From positions 248,001 through 312,000 of the forward strand of contig PHFB01000001.1 in NCBI GenBank assembly GCA_002841355.1: a stretch of 64,000 bases of DNA. Direction: 5' to 3'. Below the pieces are notes generated by a model, which was given only the letters and a program-made list of their open reading frames with translations, did no database searches and was not told the origin of the DNA. A program made the translations under genes and the position numbers. Within the stretch, counting starts at the first letter, position 1, and each line of letters opens with the position of its first letter. The stretch is from Actinobacteria bacterium HGW-Actinobacteria-1. GTDB lineage: Bacteria; Actinomycetota; Coriobacteriia; Anaerosomatales; Anaerosomataceae. Of this stretch, positions 5,397 through 57,540 are shown in pieces.

Positions 5397-5894
5397 ATGG
5401 CTAAAGACTCGAGTTTCGATGTCGTCTCACAGGTAGACCTGCAGGAAGTCGACAACGCCGTGCAGCAGGCATCAAAGGAACTTATCCAGCGCTTCGACCT
5501 CAAAGACACGCACTCGACGATCACGCTCGACAAGCACGAGGCGACCATCACCATCACGGCGCCCGGCGACTTCGTGTTCAAGCAGGTGCGCGACGTCCTC
5601 GACTCGAAGCTTGTCCGCCGCTCGATCGAGCTCAAGGCGATCACGTGGGGCAAGATCGAGGCGGCATCGGGCGACTCGGTGCGCGTTACCGGGACGATCG
5701 TCAACGGCATCGACCAGGAGATCGCCCGCAAGATCAACAAAGACGTCCGCGACCAGAAGTACAAGGTGAAGGTGCAGATCGAAGGCGACAAGGTTCGTGT
5801 GTTCAGCGCCAGCCGAGACGAACTGCAGGCAGTCATCACGTTCCTCAAGGCCGCCGACTACGGCATTCCGCTGCAGTTCAACAACTACCGCTAG
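5397..5894 (+). CDS. YajQ-family nucleotide/c-di-GMP-binding protein
   Basis: The 165 aa protein matches the YajQ (UPF0234) family across its length: it opens with DSSFDVVSQVDLQEVDNA and ends in PLQFNNYR. YajQ proteins have two ferredoxin-like folds and were first described as RNA/nucleotide binders; in Xanthomonas and Pseudomonas a member binds cyclic di-GMP. Whether this actinobacterial member does so is unknown. A strong AAAGGAG ribosome-binding site precedes the ATG. It lies between the RodZ-like gene and rimO, 7 nt upstream of the latter. Confidence 0.9.
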   Translation: MAKDSSFDVVSQVDLQEVDNAVQQASKELIQRFDLKDTHSTITLDKHEATITITAPGDFVFKQVRDVLDSKLVRRSIELKAITWGKIEAASGDSVRVTGTIVNGIDQEIARKINKDVRDQKYKVKVQIEGDKVRVFSASRDELQAVITFLKAADYGIPLQFNNYR

Positions 5895-44111: not shown

Positions 44112-45098
44112 CTAGAGGTGCGAGCCGAGCGTCGCGAGTTGAGCCCGGGTTCCCAGAACCACCAGCTCGTCCCCTGCCGCAAAGATAGTCTCGGCGGGCG
44201 GGTTCGCATTCAGAACGCCCGAGGGCGAACGCACGGCGAGGATGTACGCGCCCGTGCGATCTCGGATCTGTGCCTCGCGGATTGACTTCCCTATCAGTGG
44301 GGATGCTGTGCCAACTGTGACAGAATCGAGACGGAACTCGATCTCATCTCCGTGCGTCACGACATCCAGGTAATCCGAGACCACGGGGTGCAGGACCATG
44401 TCGGCCATGCGCCGTCCGCCGATGACATTCGGCGTGAGAACCCTGTCTGCGCCTGAGCGCAGGATCTTGGCCTCGGAAACCACTGATGATGACCGGGCAA
44501 CGATGTAGATCGAAGGATTCAGGGAGCGGGCGGTCAGCGCAACGAAGAGGTTGTCGGCGTCGGTGTCGACGGCCGTGACCAGTCCTTTGGCGCGTTCGAC
44601 TCCGGCCTCCTTGAGCACAGCCTCGTCCGTAGCGTCACCGTGTACGAAGAGCCAGCCCGCCTCCTCGGCAGCCTGACGGCACTCCTCACAGCTGTCGATT
44701 ACTACGAACGTGACGCCCTCATCCGCGAAAGACCGCGCAACGACCGAGCCGACTCGACCGATGCCGACGACGATGTGATGATCCGACAGTTCGCTGATGC
44801 GCTTATGCATGCGGCGTCCCTCCAGGAGTGTCCGCAGGTGGCCTTCGAACATGAACTCGATGATGGTTCCGAACGAGTATGCGATACCGCCGACTCCGGC
44901 GAAGATGAGCCCGATCGTGAATATCCTTCCGGCATCCGAAAGCGGTGCGACTTCCCGGTAGCCGACGGTTGCAATCGTTATGACCGTCATGTAGAGCGAA
45001 TCCAGCAGTCCCCAGCCCTCGAGCACCTGATACCCCACGGTACCCGCCACCAGCACAGCCAAGAGAAGCGACGCGGCGATGATCACGCGACGGAGCAT
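44112..45098 (-). CDS. Potassium-channel-like protein with RCK (TrkA) domains
   Basis: The 328 aa protein has two membrane helices flanking a pore loop (residues 1-90), a TrkA-N Rossmann domain (~108-225; HHIVVGIGRVGSVVA, VIDSCEE, GDATDEAVL) and a C-terminal TrkA-C domain. The layout is MthK-like. The selectivity filter reads TVGYR (residues 44-48; R codon at 44955-44957) where classical K+ channels have TVGYG, so selectivity is uncertain. The ATG overlaps the hpt stop (TGATG); longer frame upstream overlaps hpt. Confidence 0.85.
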   Translation of the reverse strand: MLRRVIIAASLLLAVLVAGTVGYQVLEGWGLLDSLYMTVITIATVGYREVAPLSDAGRIFTIGLIFAGVGGIAYSFGTIIEFMFEGHLRTLLEGRRMHKRISELSDHHIVVGIGRVGSVVARSFADEGVTFVVIDSCEECRQAAEEAGWLFVHGDATDEAVLKEAGVERAKGLVTAVDTDADNLFVALTARSLNPSIYIVARSSSVVSEAKILRSGADRVLTPNVIGGRRMADMVLHPVVSDYLDVVTHGDEIEFRLDSVTVGTASPLIGKSIREAQIRDRTGAYILAVRSPSGVLNANPPAETIFAAGDELVVLGTRAQLATLGSHL

Positions 45099-45646
45099 CA
45101 GCCCATCACGCCATCGTGAAGCGTTGCCAGGAACGGCAGGTTGCGATAACGGCCACCGAGGTCCATTCCGTATCCCACCACGAATCGATCGGGGATTCGC
45201 GTCCCAACGTAATCGATCGCCAGATCCGCGATGCGACGCACGTCTTTGTCGAACAGCGCGCACACCGCGATGCTCGCCGGTCTGCGCTGCCTGAGAACTC
45301 CGAGCAGGTAGTTCAATGTCAGGCCGGTGTCGATGATGTCCTCAACCACCAGGACATCTCGGCCGGCGATGGAGTCATCCAAGTCCTTGGTGATACGAAC
45401 AGCGCCGCCACCGTCTCCATACGCCGAGATCGCGAGGAAGTCGAGCGTCAGTGGGAGATCGATCGCGCGACACAGGTCCGCGATGAAGACGAATCCACCG
45501 CGGAGCACGGTCACCAGCGCGAGATCACGTCCCTGGTAGTCGGCGGTGATCTGGGAGCCGAGCCGGGCAACGATCTCAGCGATCTCCTCCGAGGAGTACA
45601 TAACGCCCTCAAGCGCGGGGTCGTGGAACGCGTGATATCCCTTCAC
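45098..45646 (-). CDS. hpt: Hypoxanthine phosphoribosyltransferase
   Basis: Hpt converts hypoxanthine (and often guanine) plus PRPP to IMP/GMP. The 182 aa protein has LVTVLRGGFVFIADLCRAI, the PRPP motif VLVVEDIIDTGLTL and DYVGTRIPDRFVVGYGMD. It starts at a GTG overlapping the previous gene by 4 nt. Together with apt and the two NCS2 permeases it makes a full purine-salvage set in this window. Confidence 0.95.
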   Translation of the reverse strand: MKGYHAFHDPALEGVMYSSEEIAEIVARLGSQITADYQGRDLALVTVLRGGFVFIADLCRAIDLPLTLDFLAISAYGDGGGAVRITKDLDDSIAGRDVLVVEDIIDTGLTLNYLLGVLRQRRPASIAVCALFDKDVRRIADLAIDYVGTRIPDRFVVGYGMDLGGRYRNLPFLATLHDGVMG

Positions 45647-46086
45647 TCGTCAGACCCCGGGTCCGTACCGCGGGCGGCGTCCAGTCCCCCACCCTCGCTA
45701 TGCGAGCGCTCCTGAACGGGAATGCCGTACTTGAAGAGAAGCCGACGGAAGTCCTTCTGGTACAGGATCTTGATGTTGATCTCCGGATAGAGTTCCTTCA
45801 AACGCCGAACCTTGCGGTTCTTCTTTGTGACGAGTTTCTGGTTCATCGTGGTGAGCTCGATGAACAGCCCGAAGTCCGGGAGGTAGAAGTCTGGCGCGAA
45901 TGATGCGATGACGTTGCCCTCTCCATCCCATTCGATCGGGAACGACCGGGGCTCGTACTCCCATTCGATCCGATAGAAATCGAGAATCTGGGCCGCCACA
46001 CGTTCGCTTGGATGCGCGAAGGAGATACCTGCGACTCTGGCCGAGACAGGCAGTGACTCGCCGGGCTCATCGATCCTGTCGGTCAT
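45643..46086 (-). CDS. PD-(D/E)XK nuclease-like protein of unknown function
   Basis: The 147 aa protein has a layout reminiscent of PD-(D/E)XK nucleases: a helix SERVAAQILDFY, then PDFYLPD (D66) and FIELTT (E77), with downstream K/R-rich helix KKNRKVRRLKELYP and strand INIKILY. The E-x-K lysine is replaced (E77-L-T79), though nearby lysines (K84, K88) could substitute. This fold assignment is by eye only. It is encoded between MerR and hpt, overlapping hpt by 4 nt. Confidence 0.55.
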   Translation of the reverse strand: MTDRIDEPGESLPVSARVAGISFAHPSERVAAQILDFYRIEWEYEPRSFPIEWDGEGNVIASFAPDFYLPDFGLFIELTTMNQKLVTKKNRKVRRLKELYPEINIKILYQKDFRRLLFKYGIPVQERSHSEGGGLDAARGTDPGSDE

Positions 46087-46092
46087 AGCGCC

Positions 46093-46803
46093 CTACATGA
46101 CATCGTCGAACACGCGCGCCAGCGCGCGATGGAGCATCGAGCGCTTGAGCGCGCCTGTGAGCTCCATCAATTCATTGAGTGTATCCATGAGCTTCTGTCG
46201 AATCTCCGGCGTACGGTGCCGGACAGACGGCATCAGGGCCTGCGAGAAGAACGTTGCCTCACGCTCGGCGAACGTTTCATACATGCGAAGATGACGCGGC
46301 TCGATTCCGAACTTCCGCAGATCCCAGCACGCGTGAGCGATAGCGATATCAGAACCGACGATCTCATCCCCCCGCTCGCCCGCAACGAGCCCAACGAGAC
46401 CGAAATCGGAGAGCTCCTTCACGAACGATGTAGGCAGACCAAGAACATCCGGAGCCTGTGAGACGGGAATCGCTTCGGCATCGTCAAGCGGAAGCGCCAT
46501 CGTCTCGCTTCGCGAGACCGCAGGCTGCAGCTCCGGCGGAACCCGACCCTTGTCGATGTCCTTCAGCTTCTCGCGAATCACTGCAAGCGGCATGAAATGC
46601 TCCTTCTGCAGCCGCAGAACGAGCTCTATACGCGAAACATCCGCCGGGTGGAACTTCCGGTATCCCCCACCCGTGCGTTCTGGCGAGACAAGACCTTCGT
46701 CCTCGAGGAAGCGGATCTTCGAGATCGAAAGGTCCGGGTACTGTTCGGTGAGCTTGTCGACGACCTCGCCGATCGTCATGTACTCGCGGTGGGAATCGGC
46801 CAT
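46093..46803 (-). CDS. MerR-family transcriptional regulator (FtsR/Rv1828-like)
   Basis: The 236 aa protein has an N-terminal winged HTH (residues ~8-75; YMTIGEVVDKLTEQYPDLSISKIRFLEDEGLV, split across the wing at GGGYRKFHPADVSRIELVLR) and a C-terminal domain without metal-binding cysteines. It resembles actinobacterial FtsR/Rv1828, a MerR-type activator linked to cell division. It starts 1 nt after the FHA gene. The same FHA-MerR pairing (garA-Rv1828) occurs in mycobacteria. Confidence 0.8.
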   Translation of the reverse strand: MADSHREYMTIGEVVDKLTEQYPDLSISKIRFLEDEGLVSPERTGGGYRKFHPADVSRIELVLRLQKEHFMPLAVIREKLKDIDKGRVPPELQPAVSRSETMALPLDDAEAIPVSQAPDVLGLPTSFVKELSDFGLVGLVAGERGDEIVGSDIAIAHACWDLRKFGIEPRHLRMYETFAEREATFFSQALMPSVRHRTPEIRQKLMDTLNELMELTGALKRSMLHRALARVFDDVM

Positions 46804-46804
46804 A

Positions 46805-47251
46805 CTATGCGCCCCCTCCGGAGAGATAAATCATCCGGAAACGTCCGATCTGAAGCGAATCACCATTATGAAGAAGCGCCTTGTCGACCAGAACGTCGTT
46901 CACATATGTGCCATTGAGCGATCCTGCGTCCTCGACGGTGACCCCCTCCGGCGACCGTCGGAGCCGAGCGTGGCTGCGTGAGACGGTGACGTCGTTCAAG
47001 AAGATCGCCGATTCTGGATCGCGCCCGACCGACAGATCGTCGTCGTCGATGTAGAAGCGCTCACCTATCTCGGCTCCCTTGTGAACCACCAATACCGGGC
47101 CCTCAGCATGTGCTCCCTCGGGAACACCCGTGACCTCTTCGGCAGCGATGGGCTCGAAGGACGCCGTAGCGCCCACAAGGCGCGCGCCGCACGAGGCGCA
47201 GACGCGATCATCTGCGCGTACAGCACTGTCGCATGCGGGACATCTGTCCAT
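46805..47251 (-). CDS. Zinc-ribbon and FHA domain protein
   Basis: From the ATG at 47251 the product is 148 aa. It has an N-terminal zinc ribbon (CPACDSA and CASCGA, four cysteines, residues 4-21) and a C-terminal FHA domain (~55-145) with GR76-77, SRSH 91-94 and LNGTYVN. FHA domains bind phosphothreonine. Mycobacterial GarA has an N-terminal phospho-acceptor tail instead of this zinc ribbon, so the mode of control may differ. A GTG six codons upstream is the alternative start; the AGAGGTGG site favours the ATG. Confidence 0.82.
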   Translation of the reverse strand: MDRCPACDSAVRADDRVCASCGARLVGATASFEPIAAEEVTGVPEGAHAEGPVLVVHKGAEIGERFYIDDDDLSVGRDPESAIFLNDVTVSRSHARLRRSPEGVTVEDAGSLNGTYVNDVLVDKALLHNGDSLQIGRFRMIYLSGGGA

Positions 47252-47290
47252 ATCGACCACCTCTATCACTGCGCAGGGATGAGGCGCGTA

Positions 47291-47551
47291 CTACTCCAGG
47301 AAGCCGAACTCGCGCTTCTTGAACGACTGTGCGATCTGCTCTTCAAGTGCTGCCCCGACTTCCGGGTTCTCAAGCACGCGAGAGAGCTTCTCCTCGCTCA
47401 GACGGTTCTTGACATACGGATCGTGGAGCGCCTCGGTGAGCTTCCTGCCGTTGTGCACCTCACGGATGACGTACTCGACCACGCGCTCTTCGATGACATC
47501 GATGGCGAGATCGTTCAGAAACGCCTGGATCTTCTCGGCAACAGTCGACAC
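47291..47551 (-). CDS. Small helical protein of unknown function
   Basis: The 86 aa protein looks all-helical, with a repeating pattern of charged and aliphatic residues (KIQAFLNDLAIDVIEERVVE, then RVLENPEVGAALEEQIAQSF). I recognise no domain. The GTG at 47551 follows GAGGAGG; an ATG at 47572 is the alternative. It lies between the RsiG-like gene and the FHA gene in one operon. Confidence 0.65.
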   Translation of the reverse strand: MSTVAEKIQAFLNDLAIDVIEERVVEYVIREVHNGRKLTEALHDPYVKNRLSEEKLSRVLENPEVGAALEEQIAQSFKKREFGFLE

Positions 47552-47593
47552 GCTTCCTCCTCGTGAATTCATACCTTCTGCGGCGTTGTCGGC

Positions 47594-47914
47594 CTACTCG
47601 TCCCAGTCATCGTTCTCGTTGATGGCAGCGACGTCGAACTTGGATACCCCGTGCAGGTCGCTCGACATGATGTCTATGAGACGTTCGATATCGTGACCCG
47701 ACACCACGTCCCCACCGGATTCCCGCTGGGATTTGAGACGACGGACCAACTCGGCGCGAAGAATGTCGATCTTGCCGTGAAGCACCCGTCTGCGATAGCT
47801 GACCTTCTGCTCGTCTTCGTACAGGTCGTCGAGCAGCTCTCTGAGCTCCTCCACGGACTTGTCCTCGAGGTTGAGCAGCGCATCATCGATGTTGCGCTTC
47901 TTGTCCTCGCCCAT
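47594..47914 (-). CDS. RsiG-like coiled-coil protein, candidate c-di-GMP binder
   Basis: The 106 aa protein is mostly helical, with a hairpin-like coiled coil (residues ~17-62) and an acidic tail. It contains E35-x3-S39-x2-R42-x3-H46-x3-D50 in EQKVSYRRRVLHGKID. In RsiG of Streptomyces and Rubrobacter the c-di-GMP motif is E(X)3S(X)2R(X)3Q(X)3D; only Q is changed, to H. The following ILRAELVRRL is also typical of RsiG/AmfC-like proteins. RsiG is an anti-sigma factor that holds WhiG when bound to c-di-GMP. No WhiG-like sigma gene is in the window. Function is inferred. Confidence 0.65.
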   Translation of the reverse strand: MGEDKKRNIDDALLNLEDKSVEELRELLDDLYEDEQKVSYRRRVLHGKIDILRAELVRRLKSQRESGGDVVSGHDIERLIDIMSSDLHGVSKFDVAAINENDDWDE

Positions 47915-47955: not shown

Positions 47956-47964
47956 ATTGTAGCA
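47956..47964 (-). promoter_or_regulatory. Candidate extended -10 promoter of the RsiG-like operon
   Basis: On the minus strand TGCTACAAT includes a TGn extension and TACAAT (47956-47961). Transcription would start near 47949, giving a ~35-nt leader to the RsiG-like ATG. No good -35 is visible. Confidence 0.5.
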
Positions 47965-54565: not shown

Positions 54566-54925
54566 GTGAAGTTGCTCGTAGGTAAGAGCACCGACGACCA
54601 CGATCGCGGCTTCACGATCGTCGAGTTGATGGTCGTGGTCCTCATTGTTGGCATCCTCGCCACAATCGCCATCGCCTCGTATCGCAGCCTCACAACACGG
54701 GCCGCACAAGCCGCATGTCTTGCGAACCAGAGAACGCTCTACGACGCCGTCGACGTGTACCGTATGCAAAACAACGGAAGCGTCCCCGACACGACATCCA
54801 TCGACTTCCTTCAAGACTACGCGAACACGTGGGAGTTCATCAGCGTTTGCCCGCTTGACAAGTCACCGCTGACCTTCGATTCCACCACACGCAGCATCAT
54901 CTGTCCGAACCACCCGTTCCCGTAA
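54566..54925 (+). CDS. Type IV pilin-like (prepilin) protein
   Basis: The 119 aa protein has a class III signal: charged leader, G15 then F16-TIVE with the conserved E at +5 (E20), and a hydrophobic stem (LMVVVLIVGILATIAIASY). Prepilin peptidase would cut after G15. The C-terminal part has three cysteines that could form a disulphide (C55, C99, C112). No pilus assembly genes (pilB, pilC, pilD) are in the window. The GTG start is 42 nt upstream of a GGDEF-like membrane protein with which it may be cotranscribed. Confidence 0.82.
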   Translation: MKLLVGKSTDDHDRGFTIVELMVVVLIVGILATIAIASYRSLTTRAAQAACLANQRTLYDAVDVYRMQNNGSVPDTTSIDFLQDYANTWEFISVCPLDKSPLTFDSTTRSIICPNHPFP

Positions 54926-54967
54926 GATGCAACCGGTTCGACCACGGAGTCCAAGGAGGACCCAACG

Positions 54968-55804
54968 TTGAAATACTCGCGATTCGAACTGCTCATGATC
55001 TCCCTCGGCGTCATCGTCGTCGTGGGAAGCGTGATTCTGGGTCCGGGTACCGCGACCGTCTCATGGCAAGAGGTCATCGCGCAGGTGCTTATCCTCGGCG
55101 TCCTTGCGGCGGCGCTCCACTGGGGGCGTGACGGCGGATCGGTCGCCGCGTTCGCCGCGATTCTCGTGTACGTGATCATGCGTATACCGCTCCTGAGCAC
55201 ACTTGGGCCCTCACAGAACCTCATCATCATGATCGTGACTCGCGCCCTGACCTACGCCCTCGTGGGCATAATCGGCGGCGAGTTCTTTGGCAGGATCAAG
55301 TACGTCTTCGCACGCATCGACGGCAACTCGATGCTCGATGAGCTCACGCAGGTCTACAACCGCACGTACTGCTCGCAGTCGCTCAAGAGCGGACTCGGCC
55401 AGTTCCAGCGGTACCAGACCCCGTTCTCGATCGCGATACTCAGCCTGGCGCCTGGCCTCCTGTCAGATCTGCGTCCTTCCCGCCAGCGCCTCTTGTTGCG
55501 CAGCGTTGCAACACACATCCGCAATGACGTCAGGCTTGTGGACGACGTGGGTTACCTGGGTGACGGGCGATTCATCATCATGCTGCCTCAGACCCCCAAG
55601 ACGGGTGCGGAAATCGCGAGCGACCGCATCCGTCGTTCTGTCCGAGATCTTGTCGGCGCGAAAGACGACTCCGTCACGTCAACGCCGCTCGGCTGCCCGG
55701 GAGACTCCGCAGCGATCTGCGACCTCGCACGCTCGCTCGACCCGGAGCCAGAGTCTCGGGTAGAGGACGTATGCGGTCCGACGGAGACTCCGATCGAAGC
55801 CTAG
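54968..55804 (+). CDS. Membrane protein with degenerate GGDEF domain
   Basis: The 278 aa protein has about four N-terminal membrane segments (residues ~7-104) and a GGDEF-like fold (~120-230) with DELTQVYNRTY at its start. The active-site signature is GYLGDGRF (residues 195-202) where an active enzyme has RYGGDEF, so cyclase activity is very unlikely. It may be a GTP- or c-di-GMP-binding or structural protein. TTG start follows AAGGAGGAC. Its stop overlaps that of the convergent ACT gene by 4 bp. Confidence 0.78.
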   Translation: MKYSRFELLMISLGVIVVVGSVILGPGTATVSWQEVIAQVLILGVLAAALHWGRDGGSVAAFAAILVYVIMRIPLLSTLGPSQNLIIMIVTRALTYALVGIIGGEFFGRIKYVFARIDGNSMLDELTQVYNRTYCSQSLKSGLGQFQRYQTPFSIAILSLAPGLLSDLRPSRQRLLLRSVATHIRNDVRLVDDVGYLGDGRFIIMLPQTPKTGAEIASDRIRRSVRDLVGAKDDSVTSTPLGCPGDSAAICDLARSLDPEPESRVEDVCGPTETPIEA

Positions 55805-56235: not shown

Positions 56236-57540
56236 TCACTCACTCCCCTCGTTGCGAAGGTCCAAGACGCGCTTTGCCTTACCCTCGCTGCGCTGTATCG
56301 ACTTCGGTTCCACCAGCTTGACCTCGATCGAGATGGCCAGCGCCGAGGCGATCTCCGCACCCACGCGCCGCTGCAGGTGCTCGAGCGCCTTGATTTCGTC
56401 GAATGCGAAGTCGGGACCAACCTCCACGTGAACCTCAACGTGATCGAGCGATCCCCGCTTCTTGAGCACGACCTGGTAGTGTGGCGCCACGCCAGGGATA
56501 CCGGTGAGCACCTGCTCTATCTGGCTGGGGAACACGTTGACGCCCCGGATGATGAGCATGTCGTCGGTACGCCCGCCGACACGCTGCATTCGGCGGAACG
56601 TCCGCCCGCACGAGCATGGGCCGGGGATGATCCGCGATATGTCGCGAGTGCGATAGCGGATTACCGGAATGCCTTCTTTGGTGATCGTGGTGAACACGAC
56701 CTCCCCCATCTCGCCATCGGGCACCGGCTGCAGCGTCGCTGGGTCGATGATCTCGATGATGAAGTGGTCTTCGTTGACGTGCAGCCCGTTCTTGCACTCA
56801 CATTCGGCCGCCACGCCGGGACCGAGCACCTCGGAGAGCCCGTAGATGTCGATCGCCAGGATGCCGAGCGCCTCTTCAAGCTGGGTCCGCATGTTCTCGC
56901 TCCACGGCTCCGCGCCGAAGACCCCGGCCTTGAGCGGCAGTTTGCGAGGATCGATTCCCATCTCAAGCGCGGTCTCGGCAAGCATGAGTGCGTACGACGG
57001 CGTGGCCGCGAGGACGGTGACCCCGAAGTCCTTCATGACCTGGATCTGACGCTTCGTGTTGCCGCCGGAGATCGGAATCGTCGCCGAACCAAGGCGCTCG
57101 GAGCCGTAGTGCACGCCCAATCCGCCCGTGAACAGCCCGTAGCCATAGCTGATCTGCACGATGTCGTCGGCGGTTGCGCCGGCCGAGGCCAGCGTCCGTG
57201 CCATGAGGTCGCCCCAGCGGTCGATATCGCCTTTGGTGTACCCAACAACCGTGACCTGCCCGGTGGTCCCCGAAGAAGAATGAACGCGCACGATGTCACG
57301 CATCGGAGCAGCGAACATCCCGTACGGGTAGGCAGCCCTCAGGTCGTCCTTCACCGTGAACGGGACGTTTGCAAGATCACCAAGGGATCGCACCATACTC
57401 GGATGCAGTCCTGCGTCATCGAACTTCGCACGGTATGGCGCAACGCGCTCGTAGACGCGGTCGAGCGTCTTGTTCAGGCGCTCAAGCTGCAGCACCTCCA
57501 GATCCGTGCGAGGCATCGCCTCGAAATCAGGCTGGAACAT
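56236..57540 (-). CDS. Phenylacetate-CoA ligase family enzyme (PaaK), copy 2
   Basis: The 434 aa enzyme has [29 protein letters not shown] and [19 protein letters not shown]. It is clearly homologous to copy 1 along its length but has diverged, so substrate may differ. The P-loop position after GTTG is Q instead of K. It lies between the VanW gene and its ACT partner. Confidence 0.88.

What the first reader, a model, noticed from the sequence alone, without database searches (positions are those of the whole stretch)
47594..47914. RsiG-like protein with a near-complete c-di-GMP motif heads an FHA/MerR/purine-salvage operon
The sequence shows E-x3-S-x2-R-x3-H-x3-D within an SYRRRVLHGKID helix, one residue (H for Q) from the RsiG c-di-GMP signature E(X)3S(X)2R(X)3Q(X)3D known from Streptomyces and Rubrobacter anti-sigma factors. 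One motif copy suggests a homodimeric Rubrobacter-like form. The acidic C-terminal tail is unusual. A GGDEF-like and a YajQ gene are also in the window. An RsiG ancestor outside filamentous actinobacteria would extend the evolution of this switch.
Basis: partly seen in the sequence, partly recalled or inferred. Interest (0 to 1): 0.68.

Follow-up and report, generated by a model that had tools for sequence, protein, structure and literature searches.

The report
The small protein is a genuine RsiG, a c-di-GMP-dependent blocker of the sigma factor WhiG, and in this lineage of Coriobacteriia without flagella the pair most likely decides when the cell makes type IV pili; the switch is known from other actinobacteria, but I found no report of it in this class, nor beside a second, FlgM-like candidate blocker.

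Summary
Confirmed. The minus-strand ORF 47594-47914 (106 aa) is a true RsiG: Pfam RsiG 68.5 bits (cut-off 27), best solved match Rubrobacter RsiG. The H-for-Q is not a defect: the RsiG paper accepts [Q/H], and all 30 order relatives checked have H. The genome (Coriobacteriia, order Anaerosomatales) encodes the partner, a WhiG/FliA sigma with the K-G-R residues that touch c-di-GMP in crystal structures. Of 149 Coriobacteriia, 61 have both genes, 81 neither. There are no flagellar rod genes but type IV pilus genes. WhiG-type promoters (T[AC]AAG-N14/15-GCCGATA) precede pilA (26 of 27 relatives), a minor-pilin operon, a diguanylate cyclase and a small FlgM-like gene (6 of 6 genomes). So this is most likely the Rubrobacter-style switch: c-di-GMP-loaded RsiG dimer holds WhiG and keeps pili off. 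New as far as I found: presence in Coriobacteriia; an rsiG-FHA-ftsR gene order shared by all single-motif RsiGs examined (one natural fusion) and not seen beside twin-motif ones; a second candidate anti-sigma. c-di-GMP binding, WhiG binding and promoter activity are inferred, not measured. RsiG outside filamentous actinobacteria was already known.

The parts
47594..47914 (-). rsiG, 106 aa single-motif RsiG anti-sigma factor
   Evidence: PF22802 68.5 bits vs cut-off 27; PDB best match Rubrobacter RsiG; conserved in the order
47765..47812 (-). c-di-GMP signature E35-x3-S39-x2-R42-x3-H46-x3-D50
   Evidence: direct reading; S39, R42, H46 and D50 invariant in alignment A3, E35 nearly so
47720..47854 (-). 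predicted long helix, residues 21-65 (coiled-coil arm in the Rubrobacter structure)
   Evidence: AlphaFold2 model, residues 21-60 with block pLDDT 88-93
47956..47964 (-). conserved extended -10 element (TGCTACAAT) of the rsiG unit
   Evidence: TCTG(C/A)TACAAT upstream of rsiG in 9 of 9 relatives, compared by eye; not WhiG-type
47291..47572 (-). 93-aa conserved protein of unknown function
   Evidence: 43 of 65 rsiG loci; no Pfam family above cut-off
46805..47269 (-). Zn-ribbon + FHA protein (OdhI/GarA-like)
   Evidence: PF00498 and PF13248; OdhI model 115.5 bits, below its cut-off of 200; next to rsiG in 64 of 65 loci
46093..46803 (-). MerR-family regulator FtsR
   Evidence: NF050798 202.7 bits vs cut-off 150; 64 of 65 loci
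45643..46086 (-). 147-aa conserved ORF between ftsR and hpt
   Evidence: 42 of 65 loci
45098..45646 (-). hpt, hypoxanthine phosphoribosyltransferase
   Evidence: TIGR01203 180 bits vs cut-off 150

Best explanation
The gene encodes a single-motif RsiG. Two copies form an antiparallel coiled coil that holds a dimer of c-di-GMP, and this complex captures the sigma factor WhiG (263 aa, G000:C1:190786-191577, outside the window), keeping it off RNA polymerase. When c-di-GMP falls, WhiG is released and transcribes the major pilin gene, a minor-pilin operon, at least one diguanylate cyclase (feedback) and a FlgM-like gene, so pili are made. Shown by computation: RsiG membership, the intact motif, a WhiG orthologue with the c-di-GMP-contact residues, co-occurrence, absence of flagellar rod genes, and conserved WhiG-type promoters at pilus and cyclase genes. 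Inferred from the Rubrobacter and Streptomyces structures: dimerisation, c-di-GMP binding, WhiG capture and the direction of control.
For: RsiG family and PDB matches. WhiG: TIGR02479 286 bits vs cut-off 189.6; best PDB match Streptomyces WhiG 6pfj, E=1e-93; K57/G61/R62 equivalents present as KYVAGR, whereas the FliA sequences in the alignments lack G and R, and KYVAGR found in 24 of 27 order WhiGs read. Co-occurrence: 61 both, 4 WhiG only, 3 RsiG only, 81 neither of 149 Coriobacteriia. No flagellar rod family, ten well-scoring GGDEF domains, pilus genes. TAAA-N14-16-GCCGATAA: 28 hits in 61 genomes against 1 for the reversed pattern. At least 10 of 12 consensus letters in front of pilA in 26 of 27 relatives, 76-106 nt before the GFTLVE codon. 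In own sequence, four sites score 20 or more in 318 kb, none in six dinucleotide shuffles: pilA, minor pilin, PAS-GGDEF cyclase, FlgM-like gene. The minor-pilin site recurs in 15 loci although the scoring matrix was built from pilA sites only. Rubrobacter uses the same switch for pili and cyclases (PMC8325347). Cultured Anaerosomatales are non-motile rods with pili (PMC9686372).
Against: No biochemistry and no expression data. About 318 of 2442 kb of the genome was scanned with the matrix, and the stretches were chosen around pilus, sigma and GGDEF genes, so the regulon is incomplete and the scan is biased. The fold search with the predicted model gave nothing, as expected for one helix. Co-occurrence reflects few evolutionary events, so the Fisher p-value overstates it.
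Confidence: 0.85

Rival explanations
1. It is an RsiG that still binds WhiG, but c-di-GMP is not the decisive signal: WhiG is mainly controlled by the FlgM-like protein, and RsiG is a minor or constitutive brake.
For: A FlgM-like gene under a WhiG-type promoter in 6 of 6 genomes looked at; one member reaches the Pfam FlgM cut-off (26.2 vs 25).
Against: The c-di-GMP residues of RsiG and the K-G-R contacts of WhiG are conserved, which would not be expected if ligand binding had been lost. FlgM assignment is marginal: only 3 of 6 members match at all.
Confidence: 0.1
2. RsiG here mainly serves its neighbours: it acts with the FHA protein and FtsR in cell division or 2-oxoglutarate metabolism rather than as a WhiG anti-sigma.
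For: rsiG-FHA-ftsR order kept in 64 of 65 loci from several classes and next to every single-motif RsiG in the phylum sample; natural RsiG-Zn-ribbon-FHA fusion in one genome.
Against: RsiG is present or absent together with WhiG in Coriobacteriia (whether the gut order keeps ftsR was not tested here). Rubrobacter RsiG binds WhiG (PMC8325347).
Confidence: 0.04
3. The motif is a chance look-alike in an unrelated coiled-coil protein.
For: Short helical protein; coiled coils attract weak matches.
Against: Family score 2.5 times the curated cut-off, partner sigma and regulon present.
Confidence: 0.01

Closest known systems
Rubrobacter radiotolerans RsiG-(c-di-GMP)2-WhiG switch (Schumacher et al. 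2021, PMC8325347; PDB 7lq2-7lq4)
   Same: Single motif, small protein, WhiG partner with the same sigma2 contacts to c-di-GMP, promoters at type IV pilus and cyclase genes, unicellular host.
   Different: H instead of Q in the motif, an acidic C-terminal tail, a FlgM-like second candidate anti-sigma among the predicted targets, a different class.
Streptomyces venezuelae RsiG/WhiG (PDB 6pfj, 6pfv)
   Same: Same motif and same sigma family.
   Different: Streptomyces RsiG is a twin-motif monomer and controls sporulation; no FHA or ftsR gene within 1.5 kb of rsiG in the eleven best-scoring phylum loci, which I take to be Streptomyces.
FlgM/FliA flagellar anti-sigma system
   Same: Sigma of the same clade, same promoter consensus, FlgM-like gene under its own sigma.
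   Different: No flagellar rod genes; main anti-sigma is RsiG; the FlgM-like protein matches the family only marginally.
odhI/garA-ftsR cluster of Actinobacteria (PMC6683498)
   Same: FHA gene followed by ftsR.
   Different: Here rsiG stands in front; that paper says the region upstream of odhI varies, and the passages read do not mention rsiG.

Membership tests
RsiG (PF22802) | Family profile above curated cut-off | tested here: met
   68.5 bits vs 27
RsiG (PF22802) | E(X)3S(X)2R(X)3[Q/H](X)3D motif in a long helix | tested here: met
   [Q/H] from PMC8325347
RsiG (PF22802) | WhiG partner with K-G-R contacts in the same genome | tested here: met
Single-motif (dimeric) RsiG | One motif copy in a protein of about 80-130 aa | tested here: met
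Single-motif (dimeric) RsiG | Antiparallel homodimer | not testable with these tools
   only single chains can be modelled
RsiG (PF22802) | Binds c-di-GMP and WhiG | not testable with these tools
   needs biochemistry
WhiG/FliA sigma (TIGR02479) | Above the curated cut-off | tested here: met
   286.4 bits vs 189.6
WhiG-dependent pilus regulon | Consensus promoters at pilus and cyclase genes, conserved between species | tested here: met
   pilus genes; cyclase promoter seen in this genome, its conservation not tested
FlgM (PF04316), for the G000:C1:86570-86833 protein | Family profile above cut-off | tested here: inconclusive
   one homologue 26.2 bits vs 25; the protein of this genome itself does not match; 3 of 6 members match; TIGR03824 23.4 vs 40.75; profile's best PDB hit is a FlgM at E=0.18
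OdhI/GarA, for the FHA neighbour | NF041660 equivalog cut-off | tested here: not met
   115.5 bits vs 200
FtsR, for the MerR neighbour | NF050798 equivalog cut-off | tested here: met
   202.7 bits vs 150

The most novel reading that the evidence does not exclude
In Anaerosomatales the sigma factor WhiG is held by two different anti-sigmas: RsiG, armed by c-di-GMP, and a FlgM-like protein made from WhiG's own promoter as negative feedback, in a cell without flagella. The pilus machinery would have taken over the flagellar sigma circuit whole, and this may be close to the ancestral actinobacterial state, with rsiG-FHA-ftsR as the founding operon.
Probability: 0.4. Interest if true: 0.7.

Novelty: new member of a known kind. 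Interest (0 to 1): 0.55.

Why it matters
It takes the c-di-GMP/anti-sigma/sigma switch into a class where I found no report of it, with a concrete, conserved target list, and suggests that the pilus role, not sporulation, is the old one. Cultured members of the order exist, and one makes pili only with solid ferrihydrite (PMC9686372), so whether the switch governs pili during mineral contact can be tested directly. The FlgM-like gene would contradict the earlier statement that WhiG-bearing actinobacteria encode no FlgM-like protein (PMC4255298), if its function is confirmed.

Tried and rejected
Chance motif: rejected. 'Near-complete' motif: rejected, H is an accepted variant. H in 64 of 65 loci was not used as evidence of invariance because a search peptide (VLHGKIDI) contained H; the 30 loci were used instead. 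Control of the window's own pseudopilin (54566-54925), rsiG or whiG by WhiG: no good site (best 9.8, 4.6, none). The window's best WhiG-type score (16.3, at 56294) lies in front of an ACT-domain gene and is not persuasive. The other sigmas of G000 stay below the FliA/WhiG cut-off. Fold search of the model: no match. FlgM-like protein against PDB by single sequence: chance hits only. Literature for RsiG with Coriobacteria or with FHA: only chance hits of the letters; only openly licensed papers could be searched.

Full report
What is there. The ORF 47594-47914 reads on the minus strand as a 106-aa protein with one E-x3-S-x2-R-x3-H-x3-D motif. It matches Pfam RsiG with 68.5 bits against a cut-off of 27, and its best solved matches are the R. 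radiotolerans RsiG chains 7lq4, 7lq3 and 7lq2, then Streptomyces RsiG 6pfj. It is the only RsiG in the genome. The predicted structure is one confident long helix (residues 21-65), a shorter helix (73-87) and a disordered acidic tail; a fold search adds nothing because one helix is not distinctive.

Where it comes from. The closest public relatives are Coriobacteriia genomes, several labelled Anaerosomatales. The order was described from two non-motile isolates covered with pili-like appendages (PMC9686372).

The motif. The RsiG paper itself notes that Q is often replaced by H in helix 1 and that H can make the same stacking contact (PMC8325347). All 30 order relatives fetched by protein search have H, while Rubrobacter-type relatives have Q or H. 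So the motif is complete.

The partner. A FliA/WhiG sigma scores 286 bits against a cut-off of 189.6 at G000:C1:190867-191544. It lies between xerC/dprA-type genes and pyrH/frr-type genes (my reading of the ORFs). Streptomyces WhiG is its best solved match. The three residues by which Streptomyces WhiG touches c-di-GMP (K57, G61, R62) are present as KYVAGR; the FliA proteins in the alignment lack the G-R. Of 149 Coriobacteriia, 61 have both genes, 4 only WhiG, 3 only RsiG and 81 neither; all those with either belong to the order of this genome, the rest to other orders. Several single-gene cases are incomplete assemblies, and G051, which lacks a detected WhiG, has three perfect consensus sites. 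The p-value of the table (6e-33) ignores shared ancestry.

The regulon. The genome has no flagellar rod-family hit, ten well-scoring GGDEF domains and several pilus-type ATPases. The flagellar/WhiG consensus with all 12 letters occurs once in the genome, in front of the major pilin gene at C1:429579-429605. In 61 relatives the pattern gives 28 hits against 1 for the reversed control. Reading upstream of the pilin gene itself, 26 of 27 relatives have at least 10 of 12 letters at nearly the same place. A matrix from these sites finds four strong sites (20 or more) in 318 kb of own sequence and none in six shuffles: pilA, a minor-pilin operon, a PAS-PAS-GGDEF cyclase, and a small gene. A weaker site (15.8) precedes another GGDEF gene. 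The minor-pilin site recurs at about the same distance in 15 loci, although it was not used to build the matrix. This is the regulon type shown for Rubrobacter: pili and c-di-GMP enzymes.

The FlgM-like gene. The small gene (G000:C1:86570-86833, 87 aa) lies upstream of a second pilB-type gene. Homologues were found in four further genomes by reading the expected neighbourhood and in G045. In all six the same kind of promoter ends 7-10 nt before the start codon. One homologue passes the Pfam FlgM cut-off narrowly, three of six match at all, and a profile's best PDB hit is a FlgM at E=0.18. I regard FlgM kinship as likely but unproven. A 2013 survey found no FlgM-like protein in WhiG-bearing actinobacteria (PMC4255298).

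The operon. rsiG has its own conserved extended -10 element. rsiG, the Zn-ribbon FHA gene and ftsR stand in this order in 64 of 65 loci from Coriobacteriia, Aquicultor, Solincola-type and Solirubrobacterales genomes, and beside every single-motif RsiG in a phylum-wide sample as far as the contigs reach, Rubrobacter-type ones included, but not beside the twin-motif ones, where only 1.5 kb on each side was seen. In one Rubrobacter-type genome RsiG and the Zn-ribbon FHA protein are one reading frame (L169). The FHA-ftsR pair is known as conserved (PMC6683498); rsiG in front of it I have not found described. It suggests that single-motif RsiG was in this operon early, and may hint at a link with the FHA protein.

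What is shown and what is inferred. Shown by computation: family membership, motif, partner, co-occurrence, promoter conservation, gene order. Inferred from the known structures: homodimer, c-di-GMP dimer binding, WhiG capture, pili repressed at high c-di-GMP. Not tested: any of the biochemistry. Distribution: RsiG in 248 of 396 phylum genomes, so the family is widespread and the protein as such is ordinary; the interest lies in the class, the conserved regulon, the FlgM-like gene and the shared operon.

Noticed in passing
G000:C1:86570-86833 (L248:2571-2834), outside the window: FlgM-like 87-aa gene under a WhiG-type promoter in a genome without flagellar rod genes; same arrangement in six genomes of the order.
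   Followed up: partly
L169:1429-2241: Natural fusion of RsiG with the Zn-ribbon FHA protein in one Rubrobacter-type genome.
   Followed up: partly
window 54566-55804: A pseudopilin-like gene followed by a membrane protein with a degenerate GGDEF domain (LGDGR where GGDEF is expected), about 7 kb from rsiG; kept in over 20 relatives. No convincing WhiG-type promoter.
   Followed up: partly
window 47291-47572: 93-aa protein of unknown family between rsiG and the FHA gene, conserved in Coriobacteriia and Aquicultor-type genomes but not found in the Solirubrobacterales loci.
   Followed up: no
L133, L139, L140: Perfect WhiG consensus about 175-225 nt before related, apparently secreted proteins ending in a conserved NHEIWHIIDWRDNG-type stretch (possibly metalloprotease-like); may be further WhiG targets.
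   Followed up: no
L131: Perfect WhiG consensus upstream of a multihaem cytochrome-like protein in G009, possibly linking the switch to extracellular electron transfer.
   Followed up: no
window 5397-5894: YajQ-family protein, a reported c-di-GMP binder elsewhere (my knowledge).
   Followed up: no
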